Source of the DNA: JBDROU01 sp043809745 [NCBI: bacterium]
GTDB taxonomy: Bacteria; Elusimicrobiota; JBDRMW01
Direction of reading: 5' to 3'
Assembly: GCA_043809745.1 (NCBI GenBank)
Contig: JBDROU010000080.1
Coordinates: forward strand, 52,628 to 116,627
Length of the DNA stretch: 64,000 nt
The notes beneath the pieces are model-generated. The model saw nothing but the letters and a program-made list of their open reading frames with translations, was not told where the DNA came from and searched no databases. Below, in pieces: positions 21,544-51,254 of this stretch. The position numbers and the translations under genes are program-made. Numbering within the stretch: position 1 is the stretch's first letter; every line of letters begins with the position of its first letter.

Positions 21544-22509
21544 TCAAAGCCCTTTTGATAAGATATCGTGAACATGAATCATCCCTATAACTTTTTCTTT
21601 GTTGTCCACAACGGGCATTAATGAAATCGGGCGTTCTCTTTTTTCCATCATTTCCAAAGCGGTTGCCGCCTTTGTTCTTGCATTTATTCTTGAGGGATTT
21701 GGATTCATAATATCCTTAATTTTCATCTTAAATATATTTTTTCCGCTTTCAATTATTTTTCTAATATCATAATCGGTAACAAGACCTTTAAGCTTGCCTT
21801 TTTTATCAGCGACAGAGACAGCACCGGCCATTTTCTCAGTTATAACTGCCAGCATATGTTTGACGGTATCATTAACTTTAACAACGGGATTTTGCTCATC
21901 TTTCCTCATAACATCCCCAACAGTCAAATTTAATCTCTTACCCAATAATCCGCCTGGATGATATAATGCAAAATCCCGCTTTCTAAAGCGTCTCATCTTC
22001 ATGAGAGCCAGAGAAAGAGCATCCCCTATAACCAGAGCTGCTGTAGTAGAATTTGTGGGCGCTAAATTAAATGGACAGGCCTCTCTTTCAACTTTAGTCC
22101 AAAGAACAATAGTCGACTTTTTTGCCAGTGTTGATTCTTTATTTGCAGTTATAGCTATTATCTTCACACCAATTTTTTTTATTGTCAAAAGCACCCCTAA
22201 AAGCTCGCTGCTCTCACCGGATTTACCTAAAGCAATGATAACATCATTCTTTTGCACAATACCTAAATCCCCATGCATACCCTCAGTTGGATGGACATAA
22301 ACGGCAGGAGTACCCGTAGAAACCATTGTGGCGGTTATTTTCTGCGCTATAATACCTGATTTTCCGATGCCTGTCAGTATAATCTTACCCTTACATCTAT
22401 AAATCATTTCAACGGCTTTTTTGTATTCTGAACCTACTGTGTGTAAAAGCCTGCTTATAGTATCATTCTCCTGTTTAATGACCCTCTTTATTTCACCAAC
22501 TATATCCAT
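21544..22509 (-). CDS. kpsF: Arabinose-5-phosphate isomerase (KpsF/GutQ/KdsD)
   Basis: 321 residues. An N-terminal SIS sugar-isomerase domain (about 35-180) contains TGIGKSG and HPTEGMHGDLG, followed by two CBS domains (about 205-321), the standard KdsD/KpsF architecture and length. It converts ribulose-5-phosphate to arabinose-5-phosphate, the first step to Kdo. KdsB is encoded 6 kb away in the same direction, but a KdsA-type synthase and a KdsC phosphatase are not in the window. It has its own good candidate promoter, suggesting separate control from the upstream GT genes. Confidence 0.94.
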   Translation of the reverse strand: MDIVGEIKRVIKQENDTISRLLHTVGSEYKKAVEMIYRCKGKIILTGIGKSGIIAQKITATMVSTGTPAVYVHPTEGMHGDLGIVQKNDVIIALGKSGESSELLGVLLTIKKIGVKIIAITANKESTLAKKSTIVLWTKVEREACPFNLAPTNSTTAALVIGDALSLALMKMRRFRKRDFALYHPGGLLGKRLNLTVGDVMRKDEQNPVVKVNDTVKHMLAVITEKMAGAVSVADKKGKLKGLVTDYDIRKIIESGKNIFKMKIKDIMNPNPSRINARTKAATALEMMEKRERPISLMPVVDNKEKVIGMIHVHDILSKGL

Positions 22510-23829: not shown

Positions 23830-25239
23830 TTATTCAAAAAGCACGCTGTAATTGACTTCCGTTTCATTTAGACCCAGTTTATGCTTAATTGCTGCCGAAT
23901 TTACTTCTTTCTGGGAGTTTTCCAGCAGCTTTTCTACAGAAAGCTCAGAATACTCTAATCTCAACGCGCCTTTGATCCCATTTATATCAATATATTCATG
24001 GAAATCATCACATACAAGTTGAATCACCGGTTTTCCTAGTAACATCGCCTCTTCCAGTACTGTTGTACTCATACCAACAACCAAACTGGAGTTTTTTAGA
24101 TCATCGATTAGATTTTCATCTGTAGAAATCTTAATCTCATTATTCTTTTCTTTCTGTTTAAGCCACATTTTGTTTTCCCAGCTATTCATGGCAAACTTGT
24201 GCAATCTGAGCCTTACAAGCAAATCATCCGGCTTATTTGCCATGATATTCCTTAATGCCTTAAACAATATATCATTATCAAATCTTGCAAGGGCTCCGGC
24301 AAATAAAAAATAGCTGCCACCTCCCTTTTCCTGCTGAACATTCTTCCAGCGGACATATCTTGAACTGCAGCCAAATCTGAACTCTGTTCCAGGAAAATAT
24401 GGTCTAAGCATCTTTAATATCTCCTTATTATACACATACATAACGGAAGGCAGCATTAAACCGTGCTCCCTCTCTTCCGGATAAGTGAAATACCATCTCT
24501 TCCCTTCGGTTACTTCTGCATGCTGTACTGTATAGCCAGGTATTTTATGAGTAAAAGCTACTCTCCATATTACGCGGGAATAGAAATGCATCTCATGAAT
24601 CGCGCCTACCTTTTTTATACTGTATTCTTTTATAATCTTCGAAAGTACGTCTTCAAGCAAACTCACCTGCAGCCAATGCAAGCTGAAAACCCATTCTATC
24701 CAGGTTAGGAGCAGCAACACGGCGTCAAATCCATATTTATAATGCTTTATATAAGCCATAAAAACAATCCATACCAGTATAAAATAAATCTTGATTTTCT
24801 TCTTTAACGATATACCATCAGGTATTAATTCATTATGACCGCAGCTCCCATTTGGCCCGAATACCAACAACGCATCATCATCCTCCTTTTTTACATAAGC
24901 CGTAGAATACCCATTATTAATTGCCGGAACTCCACAATTAGAAGCTACAACCAGTAATGTTTCCTTCACATTTCCATACAGCGCATATGCAAATGGACTG
25001 TTATTAAACAGTAGTTTACGCAACCCCTTTATTAAAGAAAAAAACACAGTCAGTAATGCTCGCATTAAAACTTTGATACGATGTTTATTTTTGTAACCTG
25101 TATGCCATAATATGCATACATCAGGGCTTCTTGCGCTTAATGGAGAGGCGAATATTAAAGATATGAATCTGCTATCAACTGATTTGGCAGCAGCTAAAAT
25201 AAATTTTACAGCCAGTTTCTCGATAGAATATTTATCCAT
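23830..25239 (-). CDS. GT-B-like surface carbohydrate biosynthesis protein of unknown specificity
   Basis: 469 residues, not matched by eye to a named enzyme. The C-terminal third has FLFAGALARFDN and VVGMSTTVLEEAMLLGKPVIQ, a motif resembling the donor-site S-S/T-x-x-x-E-A pattern of capsule, CDP-glycerol and polysialyl/Kdo transferase-type GT-B proteins. A hydrophobic stretch near 145-190 may be membrane-associated. It sits between the radical SAM gene and a GT4 gene. A role as transferase of a charged or ulosonic sugar is possible but inferred. Confidence 0.6.
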   Translation of the reverse strand: MDKYSIEKLAVKFILAAAKSVDSRFISLIFASPLSARSPDVCILWHTGYKNKHRIKVLMRALLTVFFSLIKGLRKLLFNNSPFAYALYGNVKETLLVVASNCGVPAINNGYSTAYVKKEDDDALLVFGPNGSCGHNELIPDGISLKKKIKIYFILVWIVFMAYIKHYKYGFDAVLLLLTWIEWVFSLHWLQVSLLEDVLSKIIKEYSIKKVGAIHEMHFYSRVIWRVAFTHKIPGYTVQHAEVTEGKRWYFTYPEEREHGLMLPSVMYVYNKEILKMLRPYFPGTEFRFGCSSRYVRWKNVQQEKGGGSYFLFAGALARFDNDILFKALRNIMANKPDDLLVRLRLHKFAMNSWENKMWLKQKEKNNEIKISTDENLIDDLKNSSLVVGMSTTVLEEAMLLGKPVIQLVCDDFHEYIDINGIKGALRLEYSELSVEKLLENSQKEVNSAAIKHKLGLNETEVNYSVLFE

Positions 25240-25272: not shown

Positions 25273-26805
25273 TCAGTTTTTAGCCTTTTGAAAGACAAAA
25301 CGTAATCTGCTCTTCAATGATTGAAGTCGTAATCCTAACCTTAACTTCATACGCACATCCGCCGACAGCGTAATAAAATAAATAATATGAATATGTTTCA
25401 TAATCAAAAGCTTCAATACGGTCGCATAATTTTTTCTCTTTAGGTTGTATGCTATATCTACCCTGTACGATACGTCTTTTACTTTTGCTAAAAACCTCTT
25501 CATCGGCATATCTGTAAGATTGTATTTATAATCTGCATAACCCCCTATATTCATTAAGTACTCCCTAGTATCTGTTATTATCCCTTTTTTTGTGCAGTAA
25601 TCATATAAGGGAGATCCGGGATAAGGAACCGCTAGGGACGCATAGTATTGTTTTGTGTTATGATCCAGACTAATTAAAAAATCTGCAGTTTCGTCCATAG
25701 TTTTACTTGATTCTTTCGGCATACCAAAAACTATGTTTGTTGTACTAGGTATTCCAACCTCACGAATAAGGGAAACCGCTGTGTAATTATCTTGGACCGT
25801 AGTACTTTTGTTCATAATGTTCAGTATGAGCGGGCTACCGGTTTCAATCCCAAAACTTAGTCTCTTCCATCCTGCCTGCTTCATCTTTTCAAGTATCAAT
25901 TTATCAACAACTCCCGGCTTACCTCCTCCTGAAAAAAAGCTGACTTTTAATTTTCTTCTAATTACCTCATCAAGCACTTCATGCAGCCAATGCTTGTCTA
26001 TTATGATTAGATCATCAATCACATAAAAAGTTGTAGCACAGTATTTCTTAATCAGAAATTCAATATAATCAACAATATATTTAGCAGAATGCCTCCTGTG
26101 CTGCCGGTTAAAATGGAAACAAAACGAGCAGTTATAAACGCATCCTCTACTGAATATTATCGAAACAAAACGGTCCTTTTCATCATATTCAAAGTACTCC
26201 TGGCTCAGGATATTCCTGGCCATCTGCTTGAGGTTATTTGAAAAATATTCAAAATCTATTTCGTCATAAGTTAAAAATGGGATGTAATCGAGATTCATTG
26301 GCAGTTCCGGTTTGTTACCGGTATATTTTCCGTTATTGTCCAGAAAGTACAAACCTGGTATTTTTTTTATACTTTCTAGATTTGAAGGATAGTTTTTCAT
26401 AAACTGTTCAATAACCAATTCCCCATCAGACTCTACTATATAATCTACAGGAGCATACTTCTCCCACAAATCTCTTATCGGGTACCCGAGTGATCCTCCT
26501 ACTATTATAGGGATGCCTTTTTTCTTTTCTCGAGTTTCTTTAACCAACTTTTCGCAAAACGGGTATGCAGATACTACGCTACCTAGAGCTAAAATGTCGA
26601 AATTCTTGGATAAAATATAATTTATTGCGGAATTATCGTCATTGCTAAATTTATTCGAGTTGGTGTCAATCAAATACGGAAGATCTAATATCTCAGCTTC
26701 ATGCCCTGTCCTTCTTATTGACTGAGCTATATATAATAAATGGATTGGCGGTATTATATATGTATCACGCAGCGGCCTTAAAGGATTTACCAGTAATACT
26801 TTCAT
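25273..26805 (-). CDS. Radical SAM protein with B12-binding-like N-terminal domain
   Basis: 510 residues. The first ~140 residues look like a cobalamin-binding-type Rossmann domain (KVLLVNPLRPLRD, VGGSLGYPIRDLW), but the canonical DxHxxG lower-ligand motif is not visible. The radical SAM cluster motif is C222-x3-C226-x2-C229 in GCVYNCSFCF, followed by FGIETGSPLILNIMNKS, usual for B12-dependent or MiaB-like radical SAM families. The basic, hydrophobic C terminus is unassigned. It is coupled to the PGDH-like gene (TAATG overlap). It could methylate or rearrange a sugar or its lipid carrier; the substrate is unknown. Confidence 0.83.
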   Translation of the reverse strand: MKVLLVNPLRPLRDTYIIPPIHLLYIAQSIRRTGHEAEILDLPYLIDTNSNKFSNDDNSAINYILSKNFDILALGSVVSAYPFCEKLVKETREKKKGIPIIVGGSLGYPIRDLWEKYAPVDYIVESDGELVIEQFMKNYPSNLESIKKIPGLYFLDNNGKYTGNKPELPMNLDYIPFLTYDEIDFEYFSNNLKQMARNILSQEYFEYDEKDRFVSIIFSRGCVYNCSFCFHFNRQHRRHSAKYIVDYIEFLIKKYCATTFYVIDDLIIIDKHWLHEVLDEVIRRKLKVSFFSGGGKPGVVDKLILEKMKQAGWKRLSFGIETGSPLILNIMNKSTTVQDNYTAVSLIREVGIPSTTNIVFGMPKESSKTMDETADFLISLDHNTKQYYASLAVPYPGSPLYDYCTKKGIITDTREYLMNIGGYADYKYNLTDMPMKRFLAKVKDVSYRVDIAYNLKRKNYATVLKLLIMKHIHIIYFITLSADVRMKLRLGLRLQSLKSRLRFVFQKAKN

Positions 26806-27746
26806 TAATTTGATTCTACTTCTAAATTAAAATATCTCAAAATATTCAGAACAGCTTGGACTTCCATTTCGGTTCTTGATCCTTCTGTTAAAGTGGATAT
26901 ATGAGGAGTTAAAATTACATTTTCAATCTCGCAAAGAGGTCCCTTATACGGTTCTTCACAGAAAACATCCAGCGCTGCCCCGCCAATATGTCCGCTTTTT
27001 AAGGCATTATAGAGCGCAGTCTCATCAAATATTTGGCCGCGGGAAGTATTTACAACAACTGTTCCTTTATTAAATAGAGATATTTCATTCTCTCCTATAA
27101 ATAAGGAATTATTCTTGTCTGTTTTAATATGAAAGCTTATTACGTTTACCTGTCTAACCAACTCATTAAATGGCAATATTGTAATATTCTTATTTTTTGA
27201 CCATTCGATATCCGGATAAGGATCGCATCCATAAACCTTCCCCCCAAGCAAATTGAGTATCTCGGCAACACGCCTACCAATCCTTCCTAAACCGACAATA
27301 CCTATCTTCCTCCCCGCCAACATATGTCCTGGGCGTTTCTTCCATTCTTTAGATTTCAATAATTGCGTATGAACCGTTAGAAGTTTTAATAAATCAAATA
27401 TCATAGCAACAGTCATTTCAGCCACAGGTTGAATTACAGCATCAGGGGTATTGAGTACTTTAATATCCTTCTTGCTAGCAACTTCCAAATCAATATTGTC
27501 TATTCCAACTCCGCAGCGACTGATGCATTTAAGCTTAGGAAGCCGCCCTAAGACCTCCTTATCATAAGGCTCAACACCAGCAATGATGCCATCAGCATCA
27601 GAACCCAACGAAACTATCTCTTCCCTATTTAATCTGTGTTTAAGCTTGTTAAAAACTATCTCAACACCACTATTCTTAATTAACTTCAACGGTTCATTGC
27701 TGTATTCACTAAAAGTTTGGAGTGCAATAAGTACCTTTTTTTTCAT
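26805..27746 (-). CDS. D-3-phosphoglycerate dehydrogenase-like 2-hydroxyacid dehydrogenase
   Basis: 313 residues, about the length of the core dehydrogenase and without the C-terminal ACT regulatory domain of SerA. The NAD loop is GLGRIG (152-157), and the catalytic residues R236 (SRGQ), E265 (CEEP) and H282 (TPHIS) are all present. It would reduce or oxidise a 2-keto/2-hydroxy acid. It overlaps kdsB (ATGA) and the radical SAM gene by one base, so it belongs to the sugar-acid run and need not make serine. Confidence 0.86.
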   Translation of the reverse strand: MKKKVLIALQTFSEYSNEPLKLIKNSGVEIVFNKLKHRLNREEIVSLGSDADGIIAGVEPYDKEVLGRLPKLKCISRCGVGIDNIDLEVASKKDIKVLNTPDAVIQPVAEMTVAMIFDLLKLLTVHTQLLKSKEWKKRPGHMLAGRKIGIVGLGRIGRRVAEILNLLGGKVYGCDPYPDIEWSKNKNITILPFNELVRQVNVISFHIKTDKNNSLFIGENEISLFNKGTVVVNTSRGQIFDETALYNALKSGHIGGAALDVFCEEPYKGPLCEIENVILTPHISTLTEGSRTEMEVQAVLNILRYFNLEVESN

Positions 27747-28513
27747 ATTTTTTTTATTATATCAAAATATTCTTTTTGAATTTTATCATTTTTTAGTATT
27801 CGTTCTATGATTGGGATGTCGTCTTCCCTATCCACCCCAAAAGTTTCCTGAGATACTACTACACCACGAATTTTATATCCGTGTTCCAAAATTCGTAAAA
27901 AATCCACGGATTCAGCAACCTCAAGCGGTGTTTGAGGAAGTTTTGTAAATTGTCGCAAAAAATCACTCTTAAACGCGGAAATCCCTGTCTGCCTATAAGA
28001 ACGAGCCTCGCTTTTAACTCTATAAAACGGTATCGGGGCCCGGGAAAAATATAATATGCTGCTTTCCTGATCTATAACAGCCTTTACTATATCAACATCC
28101 TTTAAATCTTCTCTTTTATCGATTACTGAAAGAAGATTTGTACAAACAACAGAGTCATTACTAATAATCGGTTCTATTAAACCCTTAAATATTGCTGGTA
28201 TAAATAGCGGTTCATCTCCCTGCACAATTACAATAATATCAGCATCAATATTCCTCGCAGCTTCCTCAACCCGCTCAGTACATCTTTCATGAGTATCAGA
28301 GGTCATAATAGCTTCTCCGCCAAACGAGTTTACAATATCCATTATCTCCTGATCGCAAGTGGCCACATACACCTTATCAATAACATCAGACAGCAACACC
28401 CTTCTCCTGACATGCTCTATCATAGGCAAACCCAAAATTTTTGCAAGAGGCTTTCCTGGGAATCGGGATGATCCCATCCTTGCAGGTATAACAGCAGCTA
28501 TCTTTTTCTTCAT
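27743..28513 (-). CDS. kdsB: 3-deoxy-manno-octulosonate cytidylyltransferase (KdsB)
   Basis: 256 residues from the ATG at 28513, which overlaps the TGA of the upstream SDR gene as ATGA; an upstream in-frame start at 28531 lies inside that gene and is less likely. The N-terminal signature IPARMGSSRFPGKPL (9-23) and the later QGDEP, YFSRAPIPFYR and GVDREDD are typical of KdsB. It activates Kdo or a related 3-deoxy-2-ulosonic acid as the CMP-sugar. KpsF is nearby, but the neighbours (HpaI aldolase, transaldolase, SIS) leave open that the substrate is an atypical ulosonic acid. Confidence 0.92.
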   Translation of the reverse strand: MKKKIAAVIPARMGSSRFPGKPLAKILGLPMIEHVRRRVLLSDVIDKVYVATCDQEIMDIVNSFGGEAIMTSDTHERCTERVEEAARNIDADIIVIVQGDEPLFIPAIFKGLIEPIISNDSVVCTNLLSVIDKREDLKDVDIVKAVIDQESSILYFSRAPIPFYRVKSEARSYRQTGISAFKSDFLRQFTKLPQTPLEVAESVDFLRILEHGYKIRGVVVSQETFGVDREDDIPIIERILKNDKIQKEYFDIIKKI

Positions 28514-29274
28514 TGTGGCATAACCCCGCAATCAACATTAATACACTGCCCGGTTATGGCTGAGGCTTTATCACTCGCAAGAAAAAAACATATACGGGCA
28601 ATTTCCTGTACAGTTGGAAGCCTTTGCAGCGCGGTATTCTCATTTACAAATTTCTGCAGATACAAATCAACATTCTTACCCTTAGCAGGAGAGTATTGCT
28701 CATTTAAGGCTTCCATGAGACCAAGTGTTCTCACATAAACAGGACAAACAGCGTTTACCCTGATGCCCCTAGGCCCTAATTCCTTAGCTAAAGATTGTGT
28801 AATTCCATTTACCCCGAACTTTGAAGCGCAATAAACCGAATTATCAGCGCTGCCCCGTTTCCCCGCCAGACTGGATACATTTAATATGCATCCTTTATCC
28901 TTTAAGAGTTTTGCAGCCACCTTGCATCCAAAGAAAACTCCTTTCAAATTCGTATCTATCATATCATTCCAAAAATTCTCATCCACATTTTCGATTGGAC
29001 TCCATTTAGAAAAACCAGCGCAGTTTATATAGACATCAATCTGACCGGTCAGTTCCAAAGCTTTTTCAGCTAACTTTTCGTGACCTGCTTCTTTTCTAAC
29101 ATCCATCTTTTGGAAGCATATCCTTTCCCCCAAAGTTGATTCTAAATTTGTATCCGTCCTGGCTCCAAGAACCACATAATAACCTTGAGAATGAAAATCC
29201 CTGGCAATTCCTTCTCCAATACCTCTATTCCCACCCGTAATAACAACTGTCTTAACTTTTTTGTCATTTTCCAT
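28510..29274 (-). CDS. Short-chain dehydrogenase/reductase (FabG-like), first of a pair
   Basis: 254 residues, classical SDR. The cofactor loop is TGGNRGIG (13-20), and the catalytic residues S134/S135, Y148 and K152 are in the usual VSS and YCASK contexts. The C terminus ITGQCINVDCG is normal. It lies between kdsB (ATGA overlap) and a second SDR gene 20 bp upstream. In a polysaccharide locus it is more likely to reduce a keto-sugar or keto-acid than an acyl-ACP, but the substrate is unknown. Confidence 0.86.
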   Translation of the reverse strand: MENDKKVKTVVITGGNRGIGEGIARDFHSQGYYVVLGARTDTNLESTLGERICFQKMDVRKEAGHEKLAEKALELTGQIDVYINCAGFSKWSPIENVDENFWNDMIDTNLKGVFFGCKVAAKLLKDKGCILNVSSLAGKRGSADNSVYCASKFGVNGITQSLAKELGPRGIRVNAVCPVYVRTLGLMEALNEQYSPAKGKNVDLYLQKFVNENTALQRLPTVQEIARICFFLASDKASAITGQCINVDCGVMPQ

Positions 29275-29294
29275 TTCGCACCTCAGTCAATTTA

Positions 29295-30077
29295 TTAAAT
29301 CGTCATTGCTGTGAACCCGCCGTCAACAGTAATTTCCGCGCCAGTAACAAAACTTGAGGCATCTGAACATAACCAAAGCACGGCGCCAACAAGCTCCTTT
29401 GGTTTACCGTACCGTTTCATTGCTGTATGCCCGAGAATCGCTTTTTCTCTCGCTTTATCAATAAAGTGTTTTTTACTCCACTCTGTAGGAAAAAAGCCGG
29501 GTCTGATAGCGTTTACCCTTACATTTGAAGATGCCCACTCCCTTGCAAGATTTTGAGTCAAATTTCTTACACCTGCCTTTGCAACTGAATATGTAAACGC
29601 TTTTGATAGAGGCGGCCCTGCTGACACCGAAGAAATGTTAATTATAGAACCCTTTTTCCTTTTTAGCATATATTCACCGAACACCTGGCAACCAAGCATC
29701 GTACCGTTCAATTGGACATTTAGTATTGAATTCCACTCTTCAACGGAAATATCCAAAAAAGGTGTTGGGGCGTTAATTCCTGCGCCGTTTATTAAGATAT
29801 CAATATCTCCAAACTTTCTCAACGCATATTTTAGAGCATATTCATGTTGTTTTTTGTCAGTCACATCTAAAGAACATGATTCAGCAATAGCTCCCGCTGA
29901 TTTTATCCTGTCTGCCACTTTCTTTGCTAAACCTAAATTCTTATCTGCCGCTAAAACCTTGATCCCGGCCGATGCCATAGCCACAGCCATATCACTGCAC
30001 AGAAATCCGCCGGCTCCAACCACAACTGCTGTTTTTTCTTTTAAGTTAAACAGCTCTTTCAAATAATCCTTGTTCAT
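29295..30077 (-). CDS. Short-chain dehydrogenase/reductase, second of a pair
   Basis: 260 residues, classical SDR with GAGGFLC as the cofactor loop (21-27), the NGAG motif at 97-100, and YSVAK with Y163 and K167. The C terminus VTGAEITVDGGFTAM is typical of gluconate-5-dehydrogenase/KDG-reductase-like SDRs. The two SDRs differ strongly in sequence, so they probably act on different substrates or steps of the same pathway. Confidence 0.85.
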   Translation of the reverse strand: MNKDYLKELFNLKEKTAVVVGAGGFLCSDMAVAMASAGIKVLAADKNLGLAKKVADRIKSAGAIAESCSLDVTDKKQHEYALKYALRKFGDIDILINGAGINAPTPFLDISVEEWNSILNVQLNGTMLGCQVFGEYMLKRKKGSIINISSVSAGPPLSKAFTYSVAKAGVRNLTQNLAREWASSNVRVNAIRPGFFPTEWSKKHFIDKAREKAILGHTAMKRYGKPKELVGAVLWLCSDASSFVTGAEITVDGGFTAMTI

Positions 30078-30114
30078 TTTTGCCCCTCAAATAAGTAATA
30101 CTTCTTAGAATAAA

Positions 30115-31122
30115 TTAAACATCTCTTGTATTCCCGATATCCTTATCGCTGGCGTACTCCCAATCCAATTTTATTATCGATTGAAACCTCAGCAATCTTA
30201 ACAAACTATTGAACTTTTTATTAAAAATTATACTATTTAGTAACTTATTAGTTTTATGAGACTTAATCCTTTTTATAACTACATCAAAATCTTCCTTTTT
30301 TAGATATCCATGCTCAAAACCTAGAGTCGCAATGTCTACGGCATAATCCATCATGTTGTATACAAGGCACACTATAATGCTTTTAATAATTTTCGAAACC
30401 ACATAGGATTTGTCACCTACTTTCTCAAACTCTTTATACATTACATCTATTTTTTTAAAATATAAACCGTCACCGAAAATCAATTGGCCCTTACCAAAAT
30501 ATTTAGAATATCCATTCCTTTTATTATAAAATCTCCTCAAATCTATTAATTGGAATCCCTGCTTATTCAAAAAAACATCAACATCTCGAAACATAGGCTG
30601 ATCTTTATACATCTCAATAAATTCTACTTCTATCTGCATACCAAACAACTTAGGAAGAGCTTTATCAACCCCACCCTGTAAGATAAACAATTCACTACCC
30701 TGTGTATCAAGTTTAATAAAGTCAATATCTAAAATCTCGTTATTTGAAACTACCACATCCAGACTGCTGACTTTTCGTGAAGGGATCTTTTCCTCTTTTA
30801 TCGTAGAGAATCTCTCAGAGTTAACAAATTTTGACATTAGGTCTATATTCGGCCTTAATACAGACGATTTTCCAGGCTCTTTGCTTATAAAGTACGTTAT
30901 ATCTACGGATTCCCCATATAAAAACAAGTTATAATAATTAATATTTTTGTTATTTTTTAGTTTAACAAACTCTCTCTCATCTGGTTCAAATGCAACTACA
31001 TTAATAACATCGGACAACACCTTCCATTTTTCAGGTATCCCACCCATCGCGCCAACGTCAAAAAATGTCAACGGATATTTTTTATCAATATAATTATTAA
31101 AATATTTCATGACTTTATTCAT
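30115..31122 (-). CDS. FkbM family methyltransferase
   Basis: 335 residues from the ATG at 31122. A GTG 12 bases upstream is part of the GTGAGG ribosome site and is rejected. The FkbM core is visible: FFDVGAMGG near residue 20, VAFEPDEREF, the YNLFLYG region, and IDFIKLDTQGSELFILQGG. Such enzymes O-methylate sugars with SAM. The C-terminal ~120 residues are an extra, basic part of unknown role. Confidence 0.88.
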   Translation of the reverse strand: MNKVMKYFNNYIDKKYPLTFFDVGAMGGIPEKWKVLSDVINVVAFEPDEREFVKLKNNKNINYYNLFLYGESVDITYFISKEPGKSSVLRPNIDLMSKFVNSERFSTIKEEKIPSRKVSSLDVVVSNNEILDIDFIKLDTQGSELFILQGGVDKALPKLFGMQIEVEFIEMYKDQPMFRDVDVFLNKQGFQLIDLRRFYNKRNGYSKYFGKGQLIFGDGLYFKKIDVMYKEFEKVGDKSYVVSKIIKSIIVCLVYNMMDYAVDIATLGFEHGYLKKEDFDVVIKRIKSHKTNKLLNSIIFNKKFNSLLRLLRFQSIIKLDWEYASDKDIGNTRDV

Positions 31123-31149
31123 AAAAGACCTCACTTTTATATTCTTACA

Positions 31150-31788
31150 TCAACTCAAATTATGAATATATTCTTCGATCTCAGTTAAATTATTGAATTT
31201 ATTTATTTTATAATTCTTAAATTTATAATCGCTAATTCTAGCCAAAAAAGGAATTTTTAATTCTTTTGCGGCTTTATAATCTTCTTCGCTATCTCCGATA
31301 AACAGCATCTCCTTAGGTTTAACCTTTTCTTTTCTTAATATCTCCTTAAACATCAACTTTTTCTTAACAGGCGCTCCGTAAATTATTTTGAAATATCTAT
31401 CTAACTTTTTAGCTTTCAGTATAATTTTTAGTTCATCAATCGGGGTCGCCGAAGCTAAATAAAGCTTATACTTCTTTGAAAAAGCTCTCAAAAATTTCAA
31501 AGCTCCCTCAACACACCTGCAGGATATTATTCTTTTTCTTGTTAAATCTGAAAAATCCTTAGCCCATTTTACTGCAAGCTTAGGATCATATCTTCTCTTA
31601 AAGATATGCTCAATAATATATTTAAACTTTTCATGCCTGTTAACAGCGTTATGAGAATAATGATAAGACATAATTTTGCTGTAATATTCAGGGTAAACCT
31701 TGAAAATCCTGGCAAAGGCTTTATGCTTTATTCTATTAGATTCAACTATAACACCATCAAAATCAAGTACAATTATTTTTAAATTCAT
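31150..31788 (-). CDS. HAD-superfamily sugar phosphatase-like hydrolase
   Basis: 212 residues from the ATG at 31788; the TTG one codon upstream is less likely. Motif I is LDFDGVIVES (8-17), motif II is in LYLASATPIDE, motif III lysine follows in VKKKLMF, and motif IV is FIGDSEEDYKAAKEL. An alpha-helical cap lies between motifs I and II, unlike the capless KdsC phosphatase. It could remove phosphate from a sugar-acid phosphate made by the neighbouring enzymes, which is an inference from position. Confidence 0.85.
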   Translation of the reverse strand: MNLKIIVLDFDGVIVESNRIKHKAFARIFKVYPEYYSKIMSYHYSHNAVNRHEKFKYIIEHIFKRRYDPKLAVKWAKDFSDLTRKRIISCRCVEGALKFLRAFSKKYKLYLASATPIDELKIILKAKKLDRYFKIIYGAPVKKKLMFKEILRKEKVKPKEMLFIGDSEEDYKAAKELKIPFLARISDYKFKNYKINKFNNLTEIEEYIHNLS

Positions 31789-31797
31789 CAAAAAATT

Positions 31798-32586
31798 TTA
31801 TTGTTTGTTTTTAGCGATCAGTTGATTCATCTGATCGCTCCACTTCCATAAAAGGAAAACATCAGACGCAAGCACCACAAAAGTATATCCGGACGAGAAC
31901 GCCTCTTTTACATTCTCAATTGTAGGATAAACTAACTGTATTCCGCATGATTTGCCATACTGCTTGCATGAACTGACTATTCTTTCACTTGCTTCTCTTA
32001 CCTTTTGATGCTCTATCTGGCCAGGAATATTCAGCGATCCTGAAAGATCATACGGTCCAATCATCGCACCGTCAATATCATCCTCTTCTAACAGGGAATC
32101 GATATTATCCACACCCTTTATTGACTCAACTTGAATGATAATCGAAGATGATTCGTTCCAGTTATTCACATATTCTTCAAAATCAAAACCATAACCTTGC
32201 GCCCTCGAGATTCCATAACTGCGCGCTCCCTTAGGAGGATATTTACACCAACTAATAATACGTCTAACCTCATCAACCGTATTGACCATAGGCACGATTA
32301 CTCCATCCGCACCCGAATCTAAGAGCCTTTTGATCATCTCCCCATTATGAGAAGCCACTCTTGGCAAACAAAGCTTCCCTCCAGCCTGGCTGGCCGCCAC
32401 TATACGTTGGGACTCCTGCTGGTTAATTGTGCTGTGTTCTATATCTATCCCTATGAAATCAATGGAAATATTAGTAAAAATCTCTGTTATCGAAGGATGC
32501 GCAATAGATGTCCAGCCGGCAAATACCTTTTCTCTGTTCTTGAGTTTGCTTTTTAAATTGCTTCTTCTTTTTATCAGTTTGTTCAT
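31798..32586 (-). CDS. HpcH/HpaI family pyruvate aldolase
   Basis: 262 residues from the ATG at 32586, which has an AAGGAT ribosome site; a longer frame to 32628 would run into the transaldolase gene. The active-site stretch FIGIDIEHS carries the catalytic-type histidine, and the metal ligands appear as E in QVESI and D in GPYDLSGS. Family knowledge: class II enzymes that join or split pyruvate (or hydroxypyruvate) and an aldehyde, giving 3-deoxy-2-keto acids in the synthetic direction. Position between the HAD and transaldolase genes makes an ulosonic-acid role attractive. Confidence 0.9.
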   Translation of the reverse strand: MNKLIKRRSNLKSKLKNREKVFAGWTSIAHPSITEIFTNISIDFIGIDIEHSTINQQESQRIVAASQAGGKLCLPRVASHNGEMIKRLLDSGADGVIVPMVNTVDEVRRIISWCKYPPKGARSYGISRAQGYGFDFEEYVNNWNESSSIIIQVESIKGVDNIDSLLEEDDIDGAMIGPYDLSGSLNIPGQIEHQKVREASERIVSSCKQYGKSCGIQLVYPTIENVKEAFSSGYTFVVLASDVFLLWKWSDQMNQLIAKNKQ

Positions 32587-32590
32587 TTTT

Positions 32591-33292
32591 TTATCCTTCC
32601 TTGGCAAGTTCCTTGGCTTTCTCGGCATCGCGCAGAAACATCTGAACAGTTTCTTTGCTGTAAGGATGAACTATCATGCCTTTTAATAAATCCGGAACAA
32701 CGGTAACGATATCAGCACCGGCTTCCAGCCATTCGATTATATTTAAAACTTCTCTGGTTGATCCTACAATTATTTTCGCCTCTAATTTCTGATAATCCAG
32801 TATTTTCCGCAATTTTCTAATCTCTTCGCACGAATTATAGCCCATATTGTTGACCCTGCCGCCAAATATCGAGACATAGGTAGCTCCAGCCATCGCTGCA
32901 AGCAGACATTGTTGTGCGCTCATCATCGCTGTAGTATTAATCTTTACACCATGCTTTTTAGAAAGTTCATGTACAATCGCAAGATTATCCAGCTCTCCTT
33001 GCGGACCGTGAATTGTTATTTTAACATTTATGTTATCTGCAAGCTTTGAGTACTCTATAGCCTCTTTAAGCATCTCGTCATATACATTTGTCGTAACTTC
33101 AACAGACAAAGGATAAGGTTTAATAATTTTTGCTATTTCTTTCGACCGCTCTTTTACCCCGGCCATCCCGCCTTTTACTCCGTCCTTAAGCAAGATGGTC
33201 GGATTAGTAGTAACACCCCTTATAATCCCCATCTTTATATACTTTTCAATTTCTTTTACGTTTCCTGAATCTAAAAATATTGCCGTAGACAT
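32591..33292 (-). CDS. Transaldolase, fructose-6-phosphate aldolase (MipB/TalC)-like
   Basis: 233 residues, the short class of transaldolases. TTNPTILLK at 28-36 and the Schiff-base lysine K91 in INVKITIHG match the family, and QQCLLAAMAGATYVSIFGGR matches the phosphate-binding part. It would transfer or cleave a dihydroxyacetone unit and so make or use heptulose or ketose intermediates. A good AGGAG precedes the ATG. Next upstream is a phosphoheptose-isomerase-like SIS protein. Confidence 0.9.
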   Translation of the reverse strand: MSTAIFLDSGNVKEIEKYIKMGIIRGVTTNPTILLKDGVKGGMAGVKERSKEIAKIIKPYPLSVEVTTNVYDEMLKEAIEYSKLADNINVKITIHGPQGELDNLAIVHELSKKHGVKINTTAMMSAQQCLLAAMAGATYVSIFGGRVNNMGYNSCEEIRKLRKILDYQKLEAKIIVGSTREVLNIIEWLEAGADIVTVVPDLLKGMIVHPYSKETVQMFLRDAEKAKELAKEG

Positions 33293-33310
33293 TTTAAACT
33301 CCTTTTTTTG

Positions 33311-33907
33311 TTATTTTGTGGATTCCCATTTATTTTCAACCATTTTTAATTTTGGATCAGAAGCTATTAGATGCCATATAATCCCTTGAAACGCTTCAGA
33401 ATGCGGTGTAACAGTTTCCGGATTTACCGTTGGGATTACCAGACACGCATCAGCTACTTTTGCTGTATAACCGCCATCCCTGCCTACAATCCCAACTATA
33501 CGGGCTTTAACAGATTTGGCAAATTCCAATGCCCTGACCAGATTTACGCTGATATTTTTCTCAACATTCCCTCCTCCAACAGAAAAAACAAATATTGCGT
33601 CCTCTTTCCTTAAACGACTCCCTTTCAGCCATTCAGAAAATATTGTATCCCAACCTTCATCATTAGTGCGCGCCATTAGCTCGCTTACATTATCAACAGG
33701 TGAATAAGCTTCAAATCCGGCTAACTTCCTAAAATCGTTAACCGCGTGAGATGCATTCCCAGCGCTGCCGCCCACACCGATAAAGAAGAGCCTCCCATGT
33801 TTATCACGTACATCCTTCAGCAAATCAATAATATTCTGAATATCCTCGATATCGATCTTGCCGATAATTTTTTTTGCTTCATCTAAATATTGCTCTGCAT
33901 AAGACAT
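33311..33907 (-). CDS. SIS-domain phosphosugar isomerase (GmhA-like)
   Basis: 198 residues, a single SIS domain about the length of phosphoheptose isomerase GmhA. The substrate loop is GVGGSAGNASHAVNDF (44-59), close to the GmhA GNGGSAADAQH motif, and a second glycine-rich loop is FSVGGGNVEKNIS. It probably isomerises a ketose phosphate such as sedoheptulose-7-phosphate to the aldose form. The neighbour transaldolase makes a heptose route plausible. A strong GGAGG ribosome site precedes it. Confidence 0.85.
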   Translation of the reverse strand: MSYAEQYLDEAKKIIGKIDIEDIQNIIDLLKDVRDKHGRLFFIGVGGSAGNASHAVNDFRKLAGFEAYSPVDNVSELMARTNDEGWDTIFSEWLKGSRLRKEDAIFVFSVGGGNVEKNISVNLVRALEFAKSVKARIVGIVGRDGGYTAKVADACLVIPTVNPETVTPHSEAFQGIIWHLIASDPKLKMVENKWESTK

Positions 33908-33939: not shown

Positions 33940-34962
33940 TTATTTCTTAACCACAATTCTGGCAAAAGAACTCAATCTGTTTATCTGGAGAAATTCCTGA
34001 AAATCCAAGTTCAGCTGCTCGTCCTCAGAATCAATCAAAGTTTTAACGAACCTTGGAATATCAAGTTTTCGGTTTCTTTTATATGCATTTTTAACTATAT
34101 CCAAATCCAGTATCCCAGGCGTACTGTATTCAATTATCTCAAAACCATGCCTCTTGAAGAGTATTTCAAGTCCCTCTCTAGAAAACACATTTATTCGATC
34201 CGGCGGGAATATGCTTTGCGAGTTGCCCCATAAGGTCTGCAAATCAAATCCGCTTATAGAGATTGTCGTAAGAAAGAACAAGCCTCCTTTTACCAGCATC
34301 CGGTTAACTGAACTTAAAAATCCATCAACATCCGCCAGCAGATCCAAGACCTCAAAGGCAGATACCGCATCAACACTTTCTCTTGTACCTTTAATGTCAC
34401 AAGCATTATTAATTATGCTTACAACTTTGCTGCCAGCTTTATTAGAGACTAACTCCTTGTTGTAAAAATATGGACAAACTACGAGTTTATATTTAAATAA
34501 ATTATTTTGCAGCAGATCAGAAACATAACTAGCATCTTTGTTATTGCAATCAGCTATTGTTTGAGCTTTGGGCAAGTATTCCTCAGTAATCGCACCAATC
34601 CACTGCAAACGAGGCCTATAAATCTTTTCTTTTCTCTTCTGTACTGTAGCTTTTGAAAGTGTACTTCTCCAATAGTTAATCGCGGATGATCTTAAGCAGT
34701 ATTCTCTTATATACTCATCCTTGGGATGCTCAGCTATATAAACAGTTTTACAGTTCTGGCATTCGACGTACTTAAAACCAAACTTTTCAAAGGCTGTCAC
34801 ACTTATCTTTTTACGGCAGGCAGGGCAATCCGTTTTAATCAATGTCTTTTTTGTAAAGCTTTTCTTAACATCCCTTTCGGTCAATGCCAAATACTTCTCA
34901 AATATAGCATCAGGTTTGAATTCACTCTGTCTCCCTGTATCATTAAACACCACATTTTTCAT
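33940..34962 (-). CDS. Class I SAM-dependent methyltransferase with N-terminal zinc ribbon
   Basis: 340 residues. Four cysteines, C46 and C49, C68 and C71, form a zinc ribbon near the N terminus, as in sugar C-methyltransferases. The middle holds a weak Rossmann methyltransferase domain with VSAFEVLDLLADVDGFLSSVNRMLVKGG, the usual post-motif region. The glycine-rich motif I is poorly conserved (ADCNNKDASYVSD), so catalytic competence is less certain. It abuts the Gfo/Idh gene with no gap. Confidence 0.75.
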   Translation of the reverse strand: MKNVVFNDTGRQSEFKPDAIFEKYLALTERDVKKSFTKKTLIKTDCPACRKKISVTAFEKFGFKYVECQNCKTVYIAEHPKDEYIREYCLRSSAINYWRSTLSKATVQKRKEKIYRPRLQWIGAITEEYLPKAQTIADCNNKDASYVSDLLQNNLFKYKLVVCPYFYNKELVSNKAGSKVVSIINNACDIKGTRESVDAVSAFEVLDLLADVDGFLSSVNRMLVKGGLFFLTTISISGFDLQTLWGNSQSIFPPDRINVFSREGLEILFKRHGFEIIEYSTPGILDLDIVKNAYKRNRKLDIPRFVKTLIDSEDEQLNLDFQEFLQINRLSSFARIVVKK

Positions 34963-36015
34963 TTATAGTTTCTCCCCATAAATTTTATTATCATCCTTAT
35001 AAGCTTTGTCTACAACTTCCATAACTTTCAGCGCATCCTGAGAATTGCTATTTGTTACTTTTTTACCATTCAATATGCAGTTCGTGAACTCATTCACTTC
35101 CATATCCCAAGACAAATCCTGATCAAAATAAACTACCTCTTCCCTGGGATTCCCAAGCGCAAAAGACTCATCCTCAAATTGTCTCATTCCTATAGTAAGC
35201 ATCTCTCTGCCATAGCTTCCTGTTTTTGACAGCAGTCCGGAAACTATCAGATACGCTTTTTCCAAAAATATCTCTAACTTGAAAGTATGCCTCCAGAGTG
35301 TTGCTGAAGAATGCAAGACGGCTACATTTCCCCTTGCGTTCCTGAGAGAAACAAATGCATTATCTTCCACATCCGTATCCCAGAAAACCTTTGACAGGAA
35401 ACTTTTCACTTCTATAAAATCTCCGCTGAAATACATGAACAAATCCAACATATGAATGCCCTGATCCAGAAGAATCCCTCCGCCTGAAATCTCCTTTTGG
35501 TTGCGCCAGGATTTCAAATAATTTTTTCCGCCGGATTTACCGTAAGTCCCCTTAAGAAAAAGAATCTGCCCCATCTTCTTTCCGTCTACAATCCGTTTTG
35601 CTTCAAGAATACCGGGATGATACCGATGATTAAATCCAAACATCAGTTTTAATGAAGGATTCCTTTCTTCCTCATCCCTAATCATGCATATGTCAGAAAG
35701 ATTCCTGCCCGGAGGTTTCTCACAAAATACATGCCTTCCGCTTTTTAGGAAATCGCAAACTATCCTAGGCGAAAAAGAGTTAGGGGTACAAACAAAAGCA
35801 ACATCTATTTTTGCCTTTAAAGCGTCTTTATAAGAATTGTAGGCACGACACCCTAAAGATTTTTCTTTTGAAAATGCGTTTTTATTTGAGTCATATATAT
35901 ATTGAAGATCTAAATTAGGATTCTCTTCCACAATTTTTTTCCTAATCTTGCCCATATATCCATATCCGATTATTCCTGCTTTTAATTTTACTTTTTTCTT
36001 TAACTTGTCTTTCAT
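34963..36015 (-). CDS. Gfo/Idh/MocA family oxidoreductase
   Basis: 350 residues. The N-terminal nucleotide loop is AGIIGYGYMGKI, the active-site lysine motif is FCEKPPGRNLSD near residues 94-105, and the C-terminal half includes GGGILLDQGIHMLDL. This family oxidises, reduces or epimerises sugars using NAD(P). It probably converts a nucleotide sugar or a free sugar acid of this locus. Substrate unknown. Confidence 0.86.
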   Translation of the reverse strand: MKDKLKKKVKLKAGIIGYGYMGKIRKKIVEENPNLDLQYIYDSNKNAFSKEKSLGCRAYNSYKDALKAKIDVAFVCTPNSFSPRIVCDFLKSGRHVFCEKPPGRNLSDICMIRDEEERNPSLKLMFGFNHRYHPGILEAKRIVDGKKMGQILFLKGTYGKSGGKNYLKSWRNQKEISGGGILLDQGIHMLDLFMYFSGDFIEVKSFLSKVFWDTDVEDNAFVSLRNARGNVAVLHSSATLWRHTFKLEIFLEKAYLIVSGLLSKTGSYGREMLTIGMRQFEDESFALGNPREEVVYFDQDLSWDMEVNEFTNCILNGKKVTNSNSQDALKVMEVVDKAYKDDNKIYGEKL

Positions 36016-36135: not shown

Positions 36136-36735
36136 TTAATCCGGTCTTCTTGAGATTACCTTAGCCGGCACACCGCCGACAATTGTAAAGGGCTCCACAT
36201 CCTTTGTTACAACCGCACCAGCACCTACTATAGCACCCCGCCCTATCTTTACATTGCACAGGATAACCGCATTTGAACCGATCCACACATCATCTTCTAC
36301 AACAATCTTTCCAATCTTATGCGGCTGATATTGCATCGGAATATCTCTTCTAGTGTATCCGTGGTTATTGGTCCTGAAAACCACATTCGGGGCTATCATA
36401 ACATACTTACCTATATAAATCTGACCGCCACCGTCGGCGTTGATCATAACATTCATATTCATGGCGGAGTAATCCCCGATTTCTATCCGCTCGCCACCTA
36501 CGCCATCTGCATATAAAGATGCCCTGTACCCAAGAACTACATTGTCACCCAATACAATATTTGCCGGATCTCTTATATAGCATCCTTCACAAATACTCAA
36601 TTTCTTACCGCAACTAATAAAACGGTTTCTGTAATACATACCGCGCAGCCTGAACCCTATCCCGCCTGGTAACCAACGCAGAAAAGCAATAAACCAAAAA
36701 TTAAATTCTACAAATACTTTCTTAAAAATATTCAT
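36136..36735 (-). CDS. Acyltransferase of the left-handed beta-helix (CatB/WbbJ) family
   Basis: 199 residues of hexapeptide repeats. The catalytic histidine lies in NNHGYTRRDIPM, and the end of the coil, VIGSNAVI-like repeats and the closing TIVGGVPAKVI, are typical of O-acetyltransferases such as WbbJ/MaA. It would O-acetylate a sugar of the polymer. It overlaps the upstream GT2 gene by one base (TAATG). Confidence 0.88.
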   Translation of the reverse strand: MNIFKKVFVEFNFWFIAFLRWLPGGIGFRLRGMYYRNRFISCGKKLSICEGCYIRDPANIVLGDNVVLGYRASLYADGVGGERIEIGDYSAMNMNVMINADGGGQIYIGKYVMIAPNVVFRTNNHGYTRRDIPMQYQPHKIGKIVVEDDVWIGSNAVILCNVKIGRGAIVGAGAVVTKDVEPFTIVGGVPAKVISRRPD

Positions 36736-43002: not shown

Positions 43003-43011
43003 TATTGCACC

Positions 43012-44748: not shown

Positions 44749-44767
44749 AAACACTCCTTAAGCAGCT

Positions 44768-45430: not shown

Positions 45431-45486
45431 TCTCGATTTTTACTCCCAGTAACTATAAGATCTTTTGAAAGCGGCGTTATAGTGTA

Positions 45487-47397: not shown

Positions 47398-47617
47398 CTA
47401 TGCCCTCGCTATAGCCTGATTGCTTCTATGGAATATACTTTGCCACGTGATTTCTTGTCCATTATTATTATGTAAACTTGCCCATCTTGATTTATCCAAT
47501 CATTAAATACCTGATATCGAAATAAATATCGAGTTAAATGTCAAATACCAATTCTTTTGATTCCCTCAGTAAATATAAAAATATTCATTAAATTTAATTT
47601 TTCTCTATTCACTTTCT
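47398..47617. other. Longest gap between minus-strand genes, 220 bp
   Basis: No convincing small gene or terminator is visible. The minus strand holds a perfect -35 hexamer TTGACA (47540-47545) but no good -10 at proper spacing. Two copies of TCGATAT lie 13 bp apart (47514-47520 and 47527-47533) on the minus strand just downstream of it, and could be a weak operator or chance. Confidence 0.3.
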
Positions 47618-48928: not shown

Positions 48929-48984
48929 TTTGCTAAAAATTGGTTAGAATTACTTTTTCTTGATTTTAATCCCGCTTCGTTTTA

Positions 48985-49034
48985 CCTGTAATGCCTCCTG
49001 AAGAACTTTACTCATATACTTATATCATTACAGG
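48985..49034. repeat. Inverted repeat between the NeuB-like and aminotransferase genes
   Basis: Perfect 9 bp arms CCTGTAATG (48985-48993) and CATTACAGG (49026-49034) are separated by 32 bp, just after the NeuB-like stop codon. The loop is long and no U-run follows, so it is not a typical terminator. It may be a weak attenuation or protein site, or coincidental. Confidence 0.3.
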
Positions 49035-49036
49035 CA

Positions 49037-50011: not shown

Positions 50012-50027
50012 ATTGTCTCCTGTATCT

Positions 50028-51215: not shown

Positions 51216-51254
51216 AGAATATATTTGCGATATATGTTTTAGAAAAATAAATTT

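What the first reader, a model, noticed from the sequence alone, without database searches (positions are those of the whole stretch)
27743..33907. Possible pyruvate-aldolase route to a CMP-activated ulosonic acid
SIS isomerase, transaldolase, HpaI aldolase, HAD phosphatase, FkbM methyltransferase, two SDRs, KdsB and, overlapping it, a PGDH-like reductase (to 27746 on its 5' side) form a tight co-directional run. Usual Kdo synthesis needs KdsA and a KdsC phosphatase, neither of which is seen. An HpaI aldolase can in principle build a 3-deoxy-2-keto acid from pyruvate and an aldose, which the KdsB homologue could then activate. Gene identities are well supported; the pathway is a hypothesis.
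Basis: partly seen in the sequence, partly recalled or inferred. Interest (0 to 1): 0.75.

Follow-up and report, generated by a model that had tools for sequence, protein, structure and literature searches.

The report
Aldolase-based CMP-sugar-acid gene module
This window carries a conserved gene set, shared by distantly related bacteria and archaea, that probably builds an unusual acidic surface sugar with a pyruvate-type aldolase instead of the usual phosphoenolpyruvate enzyme and then charges it with CMP; if true it is an unrecognised way of making sialic-acid-like sugars.

Summary
In detail: all named genes lie on the minus strand where stated. The conserved set is wider: two upstream genes (Gfo/Idh oxidoreductase, methyltransferase) belong to it; FkbM is a local insertion. 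The same ten genes, in the same order at 42-78% identity, occur in two archaeal genomes, and rearranged or incomplete in SAR324, Bdellovibrionota and Myxococcota-type genomes. In a tree of 62 HpaI proteins, 27 of 33 members of one supported clade have a KdsB/NeuA-type cytidylyltransferase within 8 kb, against 2 of 29 outside; 27 of 33 against 3 of 29 have a PGDH-like gene. None of nine archaeal carriers has a KdsA match; two also lack NeuB. HpaI-linked KdsBs form their own group and lack motifs that canonical KdsBs share: in 294 archaeal genomes, KdsB-type genes without HpaI or PGDH nearby (5 of 5) keep LEQLR, those with either (6 of 6) do not.

Best reading: an HpaI-type aldolase replaces KdsA/NeuB in making a CMP-activated ulosonic acid, probably not Kdo. 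The sugar, the 2-oxo-acid donor and the PGDH step are unknown; nothing was tested biochemically; the window's own genome is not held.

The parts
34963..36015 (-).
   Evidence: Pfam; present in 9 of 9 loci of this type, in L003 and L030 some 8-9 kb upstream and cut by the edge of the stretch
33940..34962 (-). class I SAM methyltransferase with N-terminal Cys motifs
   Evidence: Pfam Methyltransf_23; beside Gfo/Idh in 9 of 9 loci of this type
33311..33907 (-). SIS-domain protein, presumed ketose/aldose-phosphate isomerase
   Evidence: Pfam SIS_2; GmhA model far below cut-off; 5 of 9 loci
32591..33292 (-). small transaldolase; VKITI lysine motif and Phe in S.FGGR (transaldolase-like rather than FSA-like, marker recalled)
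   Evidence: 5 of 9 loci, one of them divergent and on the opposite strand
31798..32628 (-). class II HpcH/HpaI-type aldolase, proposed condensing enzyme
   Evidence: 56-64% identity to copies in L001-L004, L027, L028, L030
31150..31791 (-). HAD phosphatase-like protein (DFDGV and GDSEED motifs), proposed phosphatase
   Evidence: 6 of 9 loci
30115..31134 (-). FkbM methyltransferase, local insertion, not part of the conserved set
   Evidence: no counterpart at this place in the other cassettes
29295..30077 (-). short-chain dehydrogenase SDR2 (best model D-mannonate oxidoreductase, below cut-off)
   Evidence: 8 of 9 loci
28510..29274 (-). short-chain dehydrogenase SDR1
   Evidence: 7 of 9 loci
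27743..28531 (-). KdsB-type CMP-ulosonate synthetase with altered motifs (ATCD / RQTGIS / VDFLR)
   Evidence: 8 of 9 loci, in L001 about 20 kb away on the same contig
26805..27746 (-). PGDH-like D-2-hydroxyacid dehydrogenase without SerA's RSRT arginines
   Evidence: 8 of 9 loci
23830..25239 (-). candidate glycosyltransferase, distant member of an unannotated GT-B family found near many HpaI modules
   Evidence: profile hit E 5.7e-9, 31 bits; relative in L002 modelled as GT-B; own model poor

Best explanation
The genes from 36015 down to 26805 are one variant of a widespread module that makes a CMP-activated ulosonic acid without a PEP-dependent synthase. Proposed steps: transaldolase (and SIS) shape a phosphorylated aldose; the HpaI-type class II aldolase adds a 2-oxo acid (pyruvate or a relative) to it, giving a 2-keto sugar acid; the HAD protein removes a phosphate; the two SDRs, the Gfo/Idh protein, the PGDH-like protein and the methyltransferase adjust the carbon chain; the KdsB homologue transfers CMP to C2; a GT-B enzyme puts the sugar on a surface polysaccharide. 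Shown here by sequence comparison: the genes, their conservation as a set, the tie of this HpaI clade to CMP-transferases, the missing KdsA (and in two cases NeuB) in some carriers, and the separate KdsB group. Inferred: the direction of the aldolase, its substrates, the order of steps, the product, and the roles of PGDH, Gfo/Idh and the methyltransferase.
For: (1) Conserved cassette: the same ten genes in the same order in L002 (archaeal MAG) and L027 (genome G053 of the same phylum, contig 2,174,862 bases), rearranged or incomplete in L004, L001, L003, L028, L030. (2) HpaI tree of 62 sequences: clade of 33 (support 98/97) with a cytidylyltransferase within 8 kb in 27, PGDH only in 4, neither in 2; of the 29 outside, 2 have a cytidylyltransferase, 2 only PGDH, 25 neither. 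In 14 of 64 loci the two genes are same-strand neighbours within 60 bases. (3) The top-ranked of 734 plasmid records with a match (15 listed), from a cultured Acuticoccus, is an operon HpaI - acylneuraminate cytidylyltransferase - phosphoglycerate dehydrogenase - HAD - oxidoreductase; three other annotated plasmid loci opened look catabolic or transport-related. (4) KdsA over cut-off in 2 of 16 carrier genomes, no match in the 9 archaeal ones; NeuB absent from G036 and G104, whose only strong PF02348 gene lies near the HpaI. (5) HpaI catalytic D, H, R, E, D kept. (6) None of 21 KdsB-type proteins with HpaI within 10 kb has LEQLR or H.G.Y; 8 of 10 without have LEQLR; tree split 96/95. (7) The SAR324 and Bdellovibrionota genomes hold a canonical KdsA and KdsB as well as the cassette KdsB.
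Against: No enzyme was assayed, and aldol reactions are reversible. Six of the 33 clade members have no cytidylyltransferase within 8 kb (L001, L040, L091, L096, L097, L098; L091 is on a short contig, L001 has one 20 kb away, L040's genome has one about 10 kb away). Transaldolase and SIS are both absent near three of nine cassettes (L003, L028, L030). 14 of 16 carriers also have NeuB, so a NeuB product could in principle feed the CMP-transferase in those. Two HpaI-linked KdsBs (L103, L154) group nearer canonical KdsB. The PGDH-like enzyme fits no obvious place in the scheme. The window's genome is not held. The neighbour-detection profiles were built from a subset of the same loci, though HpaI loci were chosen by HpaI similarity alone. 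The out-of-clade HpaI sample comes only from the SAR324 and Bdellovibrionota searches and plasmids: in the archaeal and L003 phyla only hits at E <= 1e-50 were looked at.
Confidence: 0.68

Rival explanations
1. The KdsB homologue is a second copy (as KpsU is in capsule clusters) that activates ordinary Kdo made by KdsA elsewhere, and the aldolase and other genes make a different sugar of the same polysaccharide.
For: A KdsD/KpsF-like isomerase is in the window; SAR324 and Bdellovibrionota carriers have KdsA; the KdsB scores above the KdsB cut-off.
Against: Nine archaeal carriers have no KdsA match. Motifs kept by canonical KdsBs are lost, and HpaI-linked KdsBs form their own group. No KdsD-like match was seen in the other cassette loci annotated with the window's proteins.
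Confidence: 0.12
2. Catabolic or salvage module: HpaI cleaves a 2-keto-3-deoxy sugar acid in the degradative direction, as GarL and RhmA do.
For: Characterised relatives GarL and RhmA are degradative (family names; function recalled); aldol reactions are reversible.
Against: Below the cut-offs of the degradative families; set among polysaccharide genes and, in its clade, near cytidylyltransferases, which have no place in such a route.
Confidence: 0.07
3. The cytidylyltransferase activates something that is not an ulosonic acid (for example a branched or reduced acid made by the PGDH-like enzyme), and the aldolase makes only one part of it.
For: PGDH-like enzymes interconvert 2-oxo and 2-hydroxy acids; the gene lies within 8 kb of 27 of 33 HpaIs of the clade.
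Against: Two different subfamilies of CMP-ulosonate synthetase (KdsB-like and NeuA/PseF-like) pair with the same HpaI clade, as expected if what they share is a 2-ulosonic acid.
Confidence: 0.1

Closest known systems
Kdo pathway (KdsD-KdsA-KdsC-KdsB)
   Same: Ends in a KdsB-type cytidylyltransferase; aldose phosphate plus a C3 unit, then phosphatase, then CMP transfer
   Different: HpaI-type aldolase and no KdsA in the cassette; HAD far below the KdsC cut-off; KdsB motifs changed; extra reductases and a methyltransferase
Nonulosonic acid pathways (NeuB/NeuA, PseI/PseF, LegI/LegF)
   Same: CMP-transferase near the C-C bond-forming enzyme; part of the HpaI loci use a NeuA/PseF-like transferase
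   Different: PEP-dependent NeuB replaced by HpaI; G036 and G104 have no NeuB match at all
E. coli GarL, RhmA/YfaU and HpaI (class II pyruvate aldolases)
   Same: Fold family and catalytic residues; such enzymes can run in the synthetic direction in vitro with pyruvate, some with hydroxypyruvate, and small hydroxyaldehydes including erythrose (PMC7610986, PMC8560999; passages read)
   Different: Separate clade, biosynthetic neighbourhood, below family cut-offs
Lincosamide octose start (LmbR transaldolase, LmbN isomerase)
   Same: Transaldolase plus SIS isomerase to make a long-chain aldose phosphate (mechanism recalled; LmbR listed as transaldolase in PMC12945683, passages read)
   Different: There the octose is GDP-activated; here an aldolase and a CMP-transferase follow

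Membership tests
Canonical Kdo pathway | KdsA (Kdo-8-P synthase) in the genome | tested here: not met
   Over cut-off in 2 of 16 genomes with such HpaI genes, no match in 9 of 9 archaeal ones; not testable for the window's own genome
Canonical Kdo pathway | KdsC phosphatase in the set | tested here: not met
   Window HAD scores 19.7 against a cut-off of 106.95 bits
Canonical Kdo pathway | KdsB with the motifs shared by canonical KdsBs in the Kdo-binding half | tested here: not met
   RQTGIS/VDFLR in the window instead of RHLGIY/LEQLR of E. coli; that these columns touch Kdo is inferred from PMC3149649 (passages read), which assigns Kdo binding to the C-terminal domain
KdsB protein family (TIGR00466) | score above curated cut-off | tested here: met
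   167.9 against 155.2 bits
NeuB-type nonulosonic acid pathway | NeuB-family synthase in the cassette | tested here: not met
   None in the window cassette; no NeuB match in G036 and G104; a separate NeuB lies at 49037-50011 of the window
Class II HpcH/HpaI aldolases | catalytic D/H, R, E, D | tested here: met
   D, H, R, E, D present in the window
Class II HpcH/HpaI aldolases | metal-dependent aldol activity | not testable with these tools
   needs an assay
Degradative HpaI/GarL/RhmA equivalogs | score above curated cut-offs | tested here: not met
   136.5 of 368.8; 128.5 of 406.75; 125.4 of 441 bits
3-phosphoglycerate dehydrogenase (SerA) | RSRT arginines (phosphate side, recalled) | tested here: not met
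   Neither Arg kept in 27 of 27 module PGDHs; the Thr is Glu in 26 and Asp in 1
Phosphoheptose isomerase GmhA | score above curated cut-off | tested here: not met
   50 of 209.45 bits
GT-B glycosyltransferases (unannotated family near the module) | GT-B fold | tested here: met
   For the L002 relative only: pLDDT 86.6, Z about 14 to GT-B enzymes over residues 197-608; the window member's model is too poor

The most novel reading that the evidence does not exclude
A PEP-independent class of CMP-ulosonate pathways is shared by archaea and bacteria, in which HpaI-type aldolases do the job of KdsA and NeuB. The dedicated D-2-hydroxyacid dehydrogenase supplies a hydroxylated 2-oxo acid such as hydroxypyruvate as nucleophile, so that the products are full (not 3-deoxy) ulosonic acids.
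Probability: 0.15. Interest if true: 0.88.

Novelty: new variant of a known kind. Interest (0 to 1): 0.72.

Why it matters
The CMP-activated ulosonic acids whose biosynthesis I know of (Kdo, sialic, legionaminic, pseudaminic; recalled) get their three-carbon end from PEP. An aldolase-built class, present in archaea without KdsA and in some without NeuB, would widen the known chemistry of surface sugars, give an annotation rule (HpaI near a CMP-transferase and PGDH; KdsB without LEQLR) that could correct 'Kdo' annotations, especially in archaea, and offer tractable enzymes for making rare sugar acids. It is directly testable with a handful of purified proteins.

Tried and rejected
A sequence marker (Tyr in GPYD of HpaI) looked diagnostic at first; over 64 loci it was not: of 50 with Tyr/Phe at that column 30 have a cytidylyltransferase nearby, of 14 with other residues none. 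The tree clade is the better marker. A scan of viral contigs with the HpaI protein found no relative. A phage search with the transaldolase matched 502 records, all under 60% identity, mostly cyanophages and Listeria phages among the names shown; not followed. Full-text searches for a described pathway showed none among the titles and abstract beginnings listed (searches list only part of their hits); the library lacks most subscription journals. Structure prediction of the window's own candidate glycosyltransferase failed (pLDDT 54.5); its PDB matches carry no weight. The structure matches of the L002 model are generic GT-B enzymes and UDP-GlcNAc 2-epimerases and do not show that CMP-sugars are the donors. 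An invariant His, with Pro in 90% or more, recalls the HP motif that PMC10148158 (passages read) reports for beta-Kdo and some CMP-sialic acid transferases; its specificity was not tested. TIGR01362 rings weakly (117-132 bits, cut-off 314) in G003, G330 and G334; I read these as other members of the superfamily but did not verify it. Two HpaI rows shorter than 235 aa (L101, with a cytidylyltransferase; L127, without) were dropped from the tree. Of the 82 HpaI places outside G001 and G004 were opened with wider flanks (all 17 Bdellovibrionota places, 23 of 65 SAR324 places, mostly the best of each genome); about 7 kb of flank was the norm and several contigs end sooner. Whether PGDH acts before or after the aldolase could not be decided. 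Against the hydroxypyruvate idea: the review PMC7610986 (passages read) says that only 19 of 571 screened class II aldolases took hydroxypyruvate.


Full report
What is in the window. The 64 kb window is a polysaccharide/glycan biosynthesis island (35.9% G+C) whose recognised genes lie on the minus strand. Reading 5' to 3' on the minus strand the run is: hexapeptide acetyltransferase 36136-36735, Gfo/Idh 34963-36015, methyltransferase 33940-34962, SIS 33311-33907, transaldolase 32591-33292, HpaI 31798-32628, HAD 31150-31791, FkbM 30115-31134, SDR2 29295-30077, SDR1 28510-29274, KdsB 27743-28531, PGDH-like 26805-27746, then a radical-SAM/B12 protein and a 469-aa protein without a Pfam family above cut-off. 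No whole genome is held for the window, so whether kdsA and kdsC lie elsewhere in this organism cannot be answered here.

The set is conserved. The single genome-collection scan, with the HpaI protein, gave four loci, 60-64% identical (best segment) over nearly the whole query: a SAR324 MAG, a Methanomicrobiaceae archaeon MAG, a deltaproteobacterial MAG and a Bdellovibrionaceae MAG. The archaeal locus L002 carries Gfo/Idh - methyltransferase - SIS - transaldolase - HpaI - HAD - SDR2 - SDR1 - KdsB - PGDH in the window's order at 42-70% identity (methyltransferase 42, HAD 47, PGDH 51, the rest 60-70), without FkbM. A second genome of that phylum, G053, has the same ten genes in the same order at 50-78% identity (L027), on a contig of 2,174,862 bases in a genome of 2.2 Mb, so a binning error is an unlikely explanation. 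L004 has nine of the ten in a different order, with a divergent transaldolase nearby on the other strand; L001 has Gfo/Idh - methyltransferase - transaldolase - HpaI - HAD, with a 58%-identical KdsB about 20 kb further on the same contig; L003 and L028 have HpaI - SDR2 - SDR1 - KdsB - PGDH (L028 with one extra methyltransferase gene between the SDRs), and L030 the same with HAD after HpaI. In the nine loci of the window-type HpaI subclade (window, L001 with L134, L002, L003, L004, L027, L028, L030, L091), at the thresholds: HpaI 9, Gfo/Idh 9, methyltransferase 9, KdsB 8, SDR2 8, PGDH 8, SDR1 7, HAD 6, SIS 5, transaldolase 5. In L003 and L030 the Gfo/Idh-methyltransferase pair lies some 8-9 kb upstream. 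The one locus without KdsB (L091) is an 8.6-kb contig.

A wider module. Searching 294 genomes of the archaeal phylum, 46 of the phylum of L003, 52 of that of L001 and 240 of that of L004 with the HpaI alignment showed more distant HpaI relatives; in the first two only hits at E <= 1e-50 were taken. Opening their surroundings showed that many sit near a cytidylyltransferase, either KdsB-like or NeuA/PseF-like, a PGDH-like gene and often a HAD gene, an epimerase or a PF04199 'cyclase'. A maximum-likelihood tree of 62 HpaI proteins (64 loci less two short rows) has a clade of 33 with support 98/97: 27 have a cytidylyltransferase within 8 kb, 4 have only PGDH, 2 have neither. Of the 29 outside, 2 have a cytidylyltransferase (L103, L120), 2 only PGDH, 25 neither. 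PGDH, with or without the transferase, is near 27 of 33 and 3 of 29. In 14 of 64 loci the HpaI and cytidylyltransferase genes are same-strand neighbours within 60 bases. The top-ranked of 734 plasmid records with an HpaI-like match (15 listed), from Acuticoccus (pure culture, seawater), is an operon HpaI - acylneuraminate cytidylyltransferase - phosphoglycerate dehydrogenase - HAD - oxidoreductase. Three other annotated plasmid loci opened as comparison (Haloterrigena, E. coli yfaU, Nitratireductor) lie among transport and catabolic genes by my reading of their annotation; a fourth (Microvirga) has no annotation.

No usual condensing enzyme. In 16 genomes with HpaI genes of this kind (both score classes), KdsA exceeds its cut-off in two (G001 SAR324, G004 Bdellovibrionota), rings weakly in three (G003, G330, G334) and has no match in the nine archaeal genomes. 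NeuB is present in 14 of 16, but not in G036 and G104, whose only strong PF02348 hits (97.5 and 92.5 bits; the others at most 30.4) are the genes near the HpaI. G036 is nearly one contig (2,494,162 bases of 2.5 Mb). In these two genomes the HpaI is the only candidate I found for building a CMP-transferable ulosonic acid. KdsC exceeds its cut-off in 2 of the 13 carriers searched (G001, G226), which is neutral.

The KdsB is of a separate kind. Aligned with E. coli KdsB and the second, canonical KdsBs of G001 and G004, the HpaI-linked KdsBs mostly differ at the same places: ATD to ATC, SGTER/TGTDR to forms such as RCTDR, RHLGIY to forms without the His and Tyr, LEQLR to [IV]D..R or near it. None of 21 KdsB-type proteins with HpaI within 10 kb has LEQLR or H.G.Y; of the 10 without, 8 have LEQLR, and the other two are L134 (its HpaI is 20 kb away) and L152 (PGDH nearby). 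A tree puts 21 cassette-type KdsBs (these two included, L103 and L154 not) on one side of a 96/95 branch. L103 and L154 are a third kind, linked to HpaI but nearer canonical KdsB. The reverse search in the same 294 archaeal genomes found 11 KdsB-type genes: five with HpaI beside or near them, one with PGDH only, five with neither; all of the last five keep LEQLR, none of the first six do. PMC3149649 (passages read) assigns Kdo binding to the C-terminal domain, where two of these changes lie; that these columns touch the sugar is my inference. So the product is probably not Kdo.

What the other enzymes say. The HpaI keeps the class II catalytic residues. A review (PMC7610986, passages read) reports that HpcH/HpaI aldolases take pyruvate as nucleophile, hydroxypyruvate in 19 of 571 enzymes screened, and small hydroxyaldehydes including erythrose as acceptors; PMC8560999 (passages read) shows an Acinetobacter HpaI condensing pyruvate with D-glyceraldehyde. 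The transaldolase is nearest a 'probable transaldolase' (PDB 3s0c, 122 bits; E. coli-type FSA 1l6w 53 bits) and has Phe where FSA has Tyr (marker recalled). The PGDH-like proteins keep the catalytic Arg, Glu and His (roles recalled), but in 27 of 27 both arginines of SerA's RSRT are lost and the Thr is Glu (26) or Asp (1); I infer that their substrate is not 3-phosphoglycerate. PGDH would then be a dedicated 2-hydroxyacid dehydrogenase of unknown substrate; it may make the 2-oxo acid used by HpaI or act on the product. The SIS protein is not a recognisable GmhA, so its isomerase role is presumed.

A candidate glycosyltransferase. An unannotated family of about 470-650 aa occurs in 17 of the 47 loci scanned: 16 that carry HpaI (window 23830-25239 at E 5.7e-9, L001, L002, L027, L028, L036, L037, L038, L040, L091, L100, L103, L108, L109, L120, L154) and L153, which does not; the window and L103 matches are weak (31 and 28 bits). 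The L002 member is predicted with good confidence (pLDDT 86.6), and its residues 197-608 match GT-B glycosyltransferases and UDP-GlcNAc 2-epimerases (Z about 14). A conserved His-Pro recalls the HP motif that PMC10148158 (passages read) reports for beta-Kdo and some CMP-sialic acid transferases. It is a candidate for the enzyme that uses the CMP-sugar; donor specificity is untested.

Verdict. I rate the general mechanism at 0.68. The kind is known (CMP-ulosonate biosynthesis); the condensing enzyme and the gene set make it a new variant. Seven full-text searches showed no description of it among the titles and abstract beginnings listed.

Noticed in passing
21544-22509: KdsD/KpsF-like arabinose-5-phosphate isomerase (SIS plus two CBS domains) 4-5 kb downstream of the cassette; suggests that the organism may also make ordinary Kdo.
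   Followed up: partly
44768-52250: A second, NeuB-based set: NeuA-like cytidylyltransferase, a 636-aa possible glycosyltransferase, a glutamate-semialdehyde-aminomutase-like aminotransferase, NeuB, DegT aminotransferase and a PseB-like dehydratase (some names by eye); probably a separate nonulosonic acid.
   Followed up: partly
41953-44754: PfkB-family sugar kinase next to a protein with an HMGL-like (DRE-TIM) domain and a weak MptE-like C-terminal match; an unusual pair in a polysaccharide island.
   Followed up: no
L031 and L003 (both G003 contig C72); L029 and L028 (both G334 contig C8): Two different HpaI/cytidylyltransferase modules about 25-28 kb apart on the same contig, one KdsB-linked and one NeuA-linked.
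   Followed up: partly
L032:6470-7162 and relatives in nine other loci: A PF04199 'cyclase' (arylformamidase-like) family recurs in HpaI modules, 7 of 10 of them NeuA-linked; role unknown.
   Followed up: partly
L155:7416-8801, L156:8013-9212, L157:7977-9170: Archaeal KdsB-type ORFs of about 400-460 aa with canonical LEQLR and KHIGLY motifs and no HpaI or PGDH nearby; the extra length may be another domain. Whether these genomes have KdsA was not searched.
   Followed up: no
L103 and L154: A third kind of HpaI-linked KdsB (ATDS, NEYLR) with a more distant HpaI and a member of the same unannotated GT-B family; perhaps an independent pairing.
   Followed up: no
L028:13889-15418: Fused PfkB kinase and cytidylyltransferase-like protein (HldE-like layout) directly after PGDH.
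   Followed up: no
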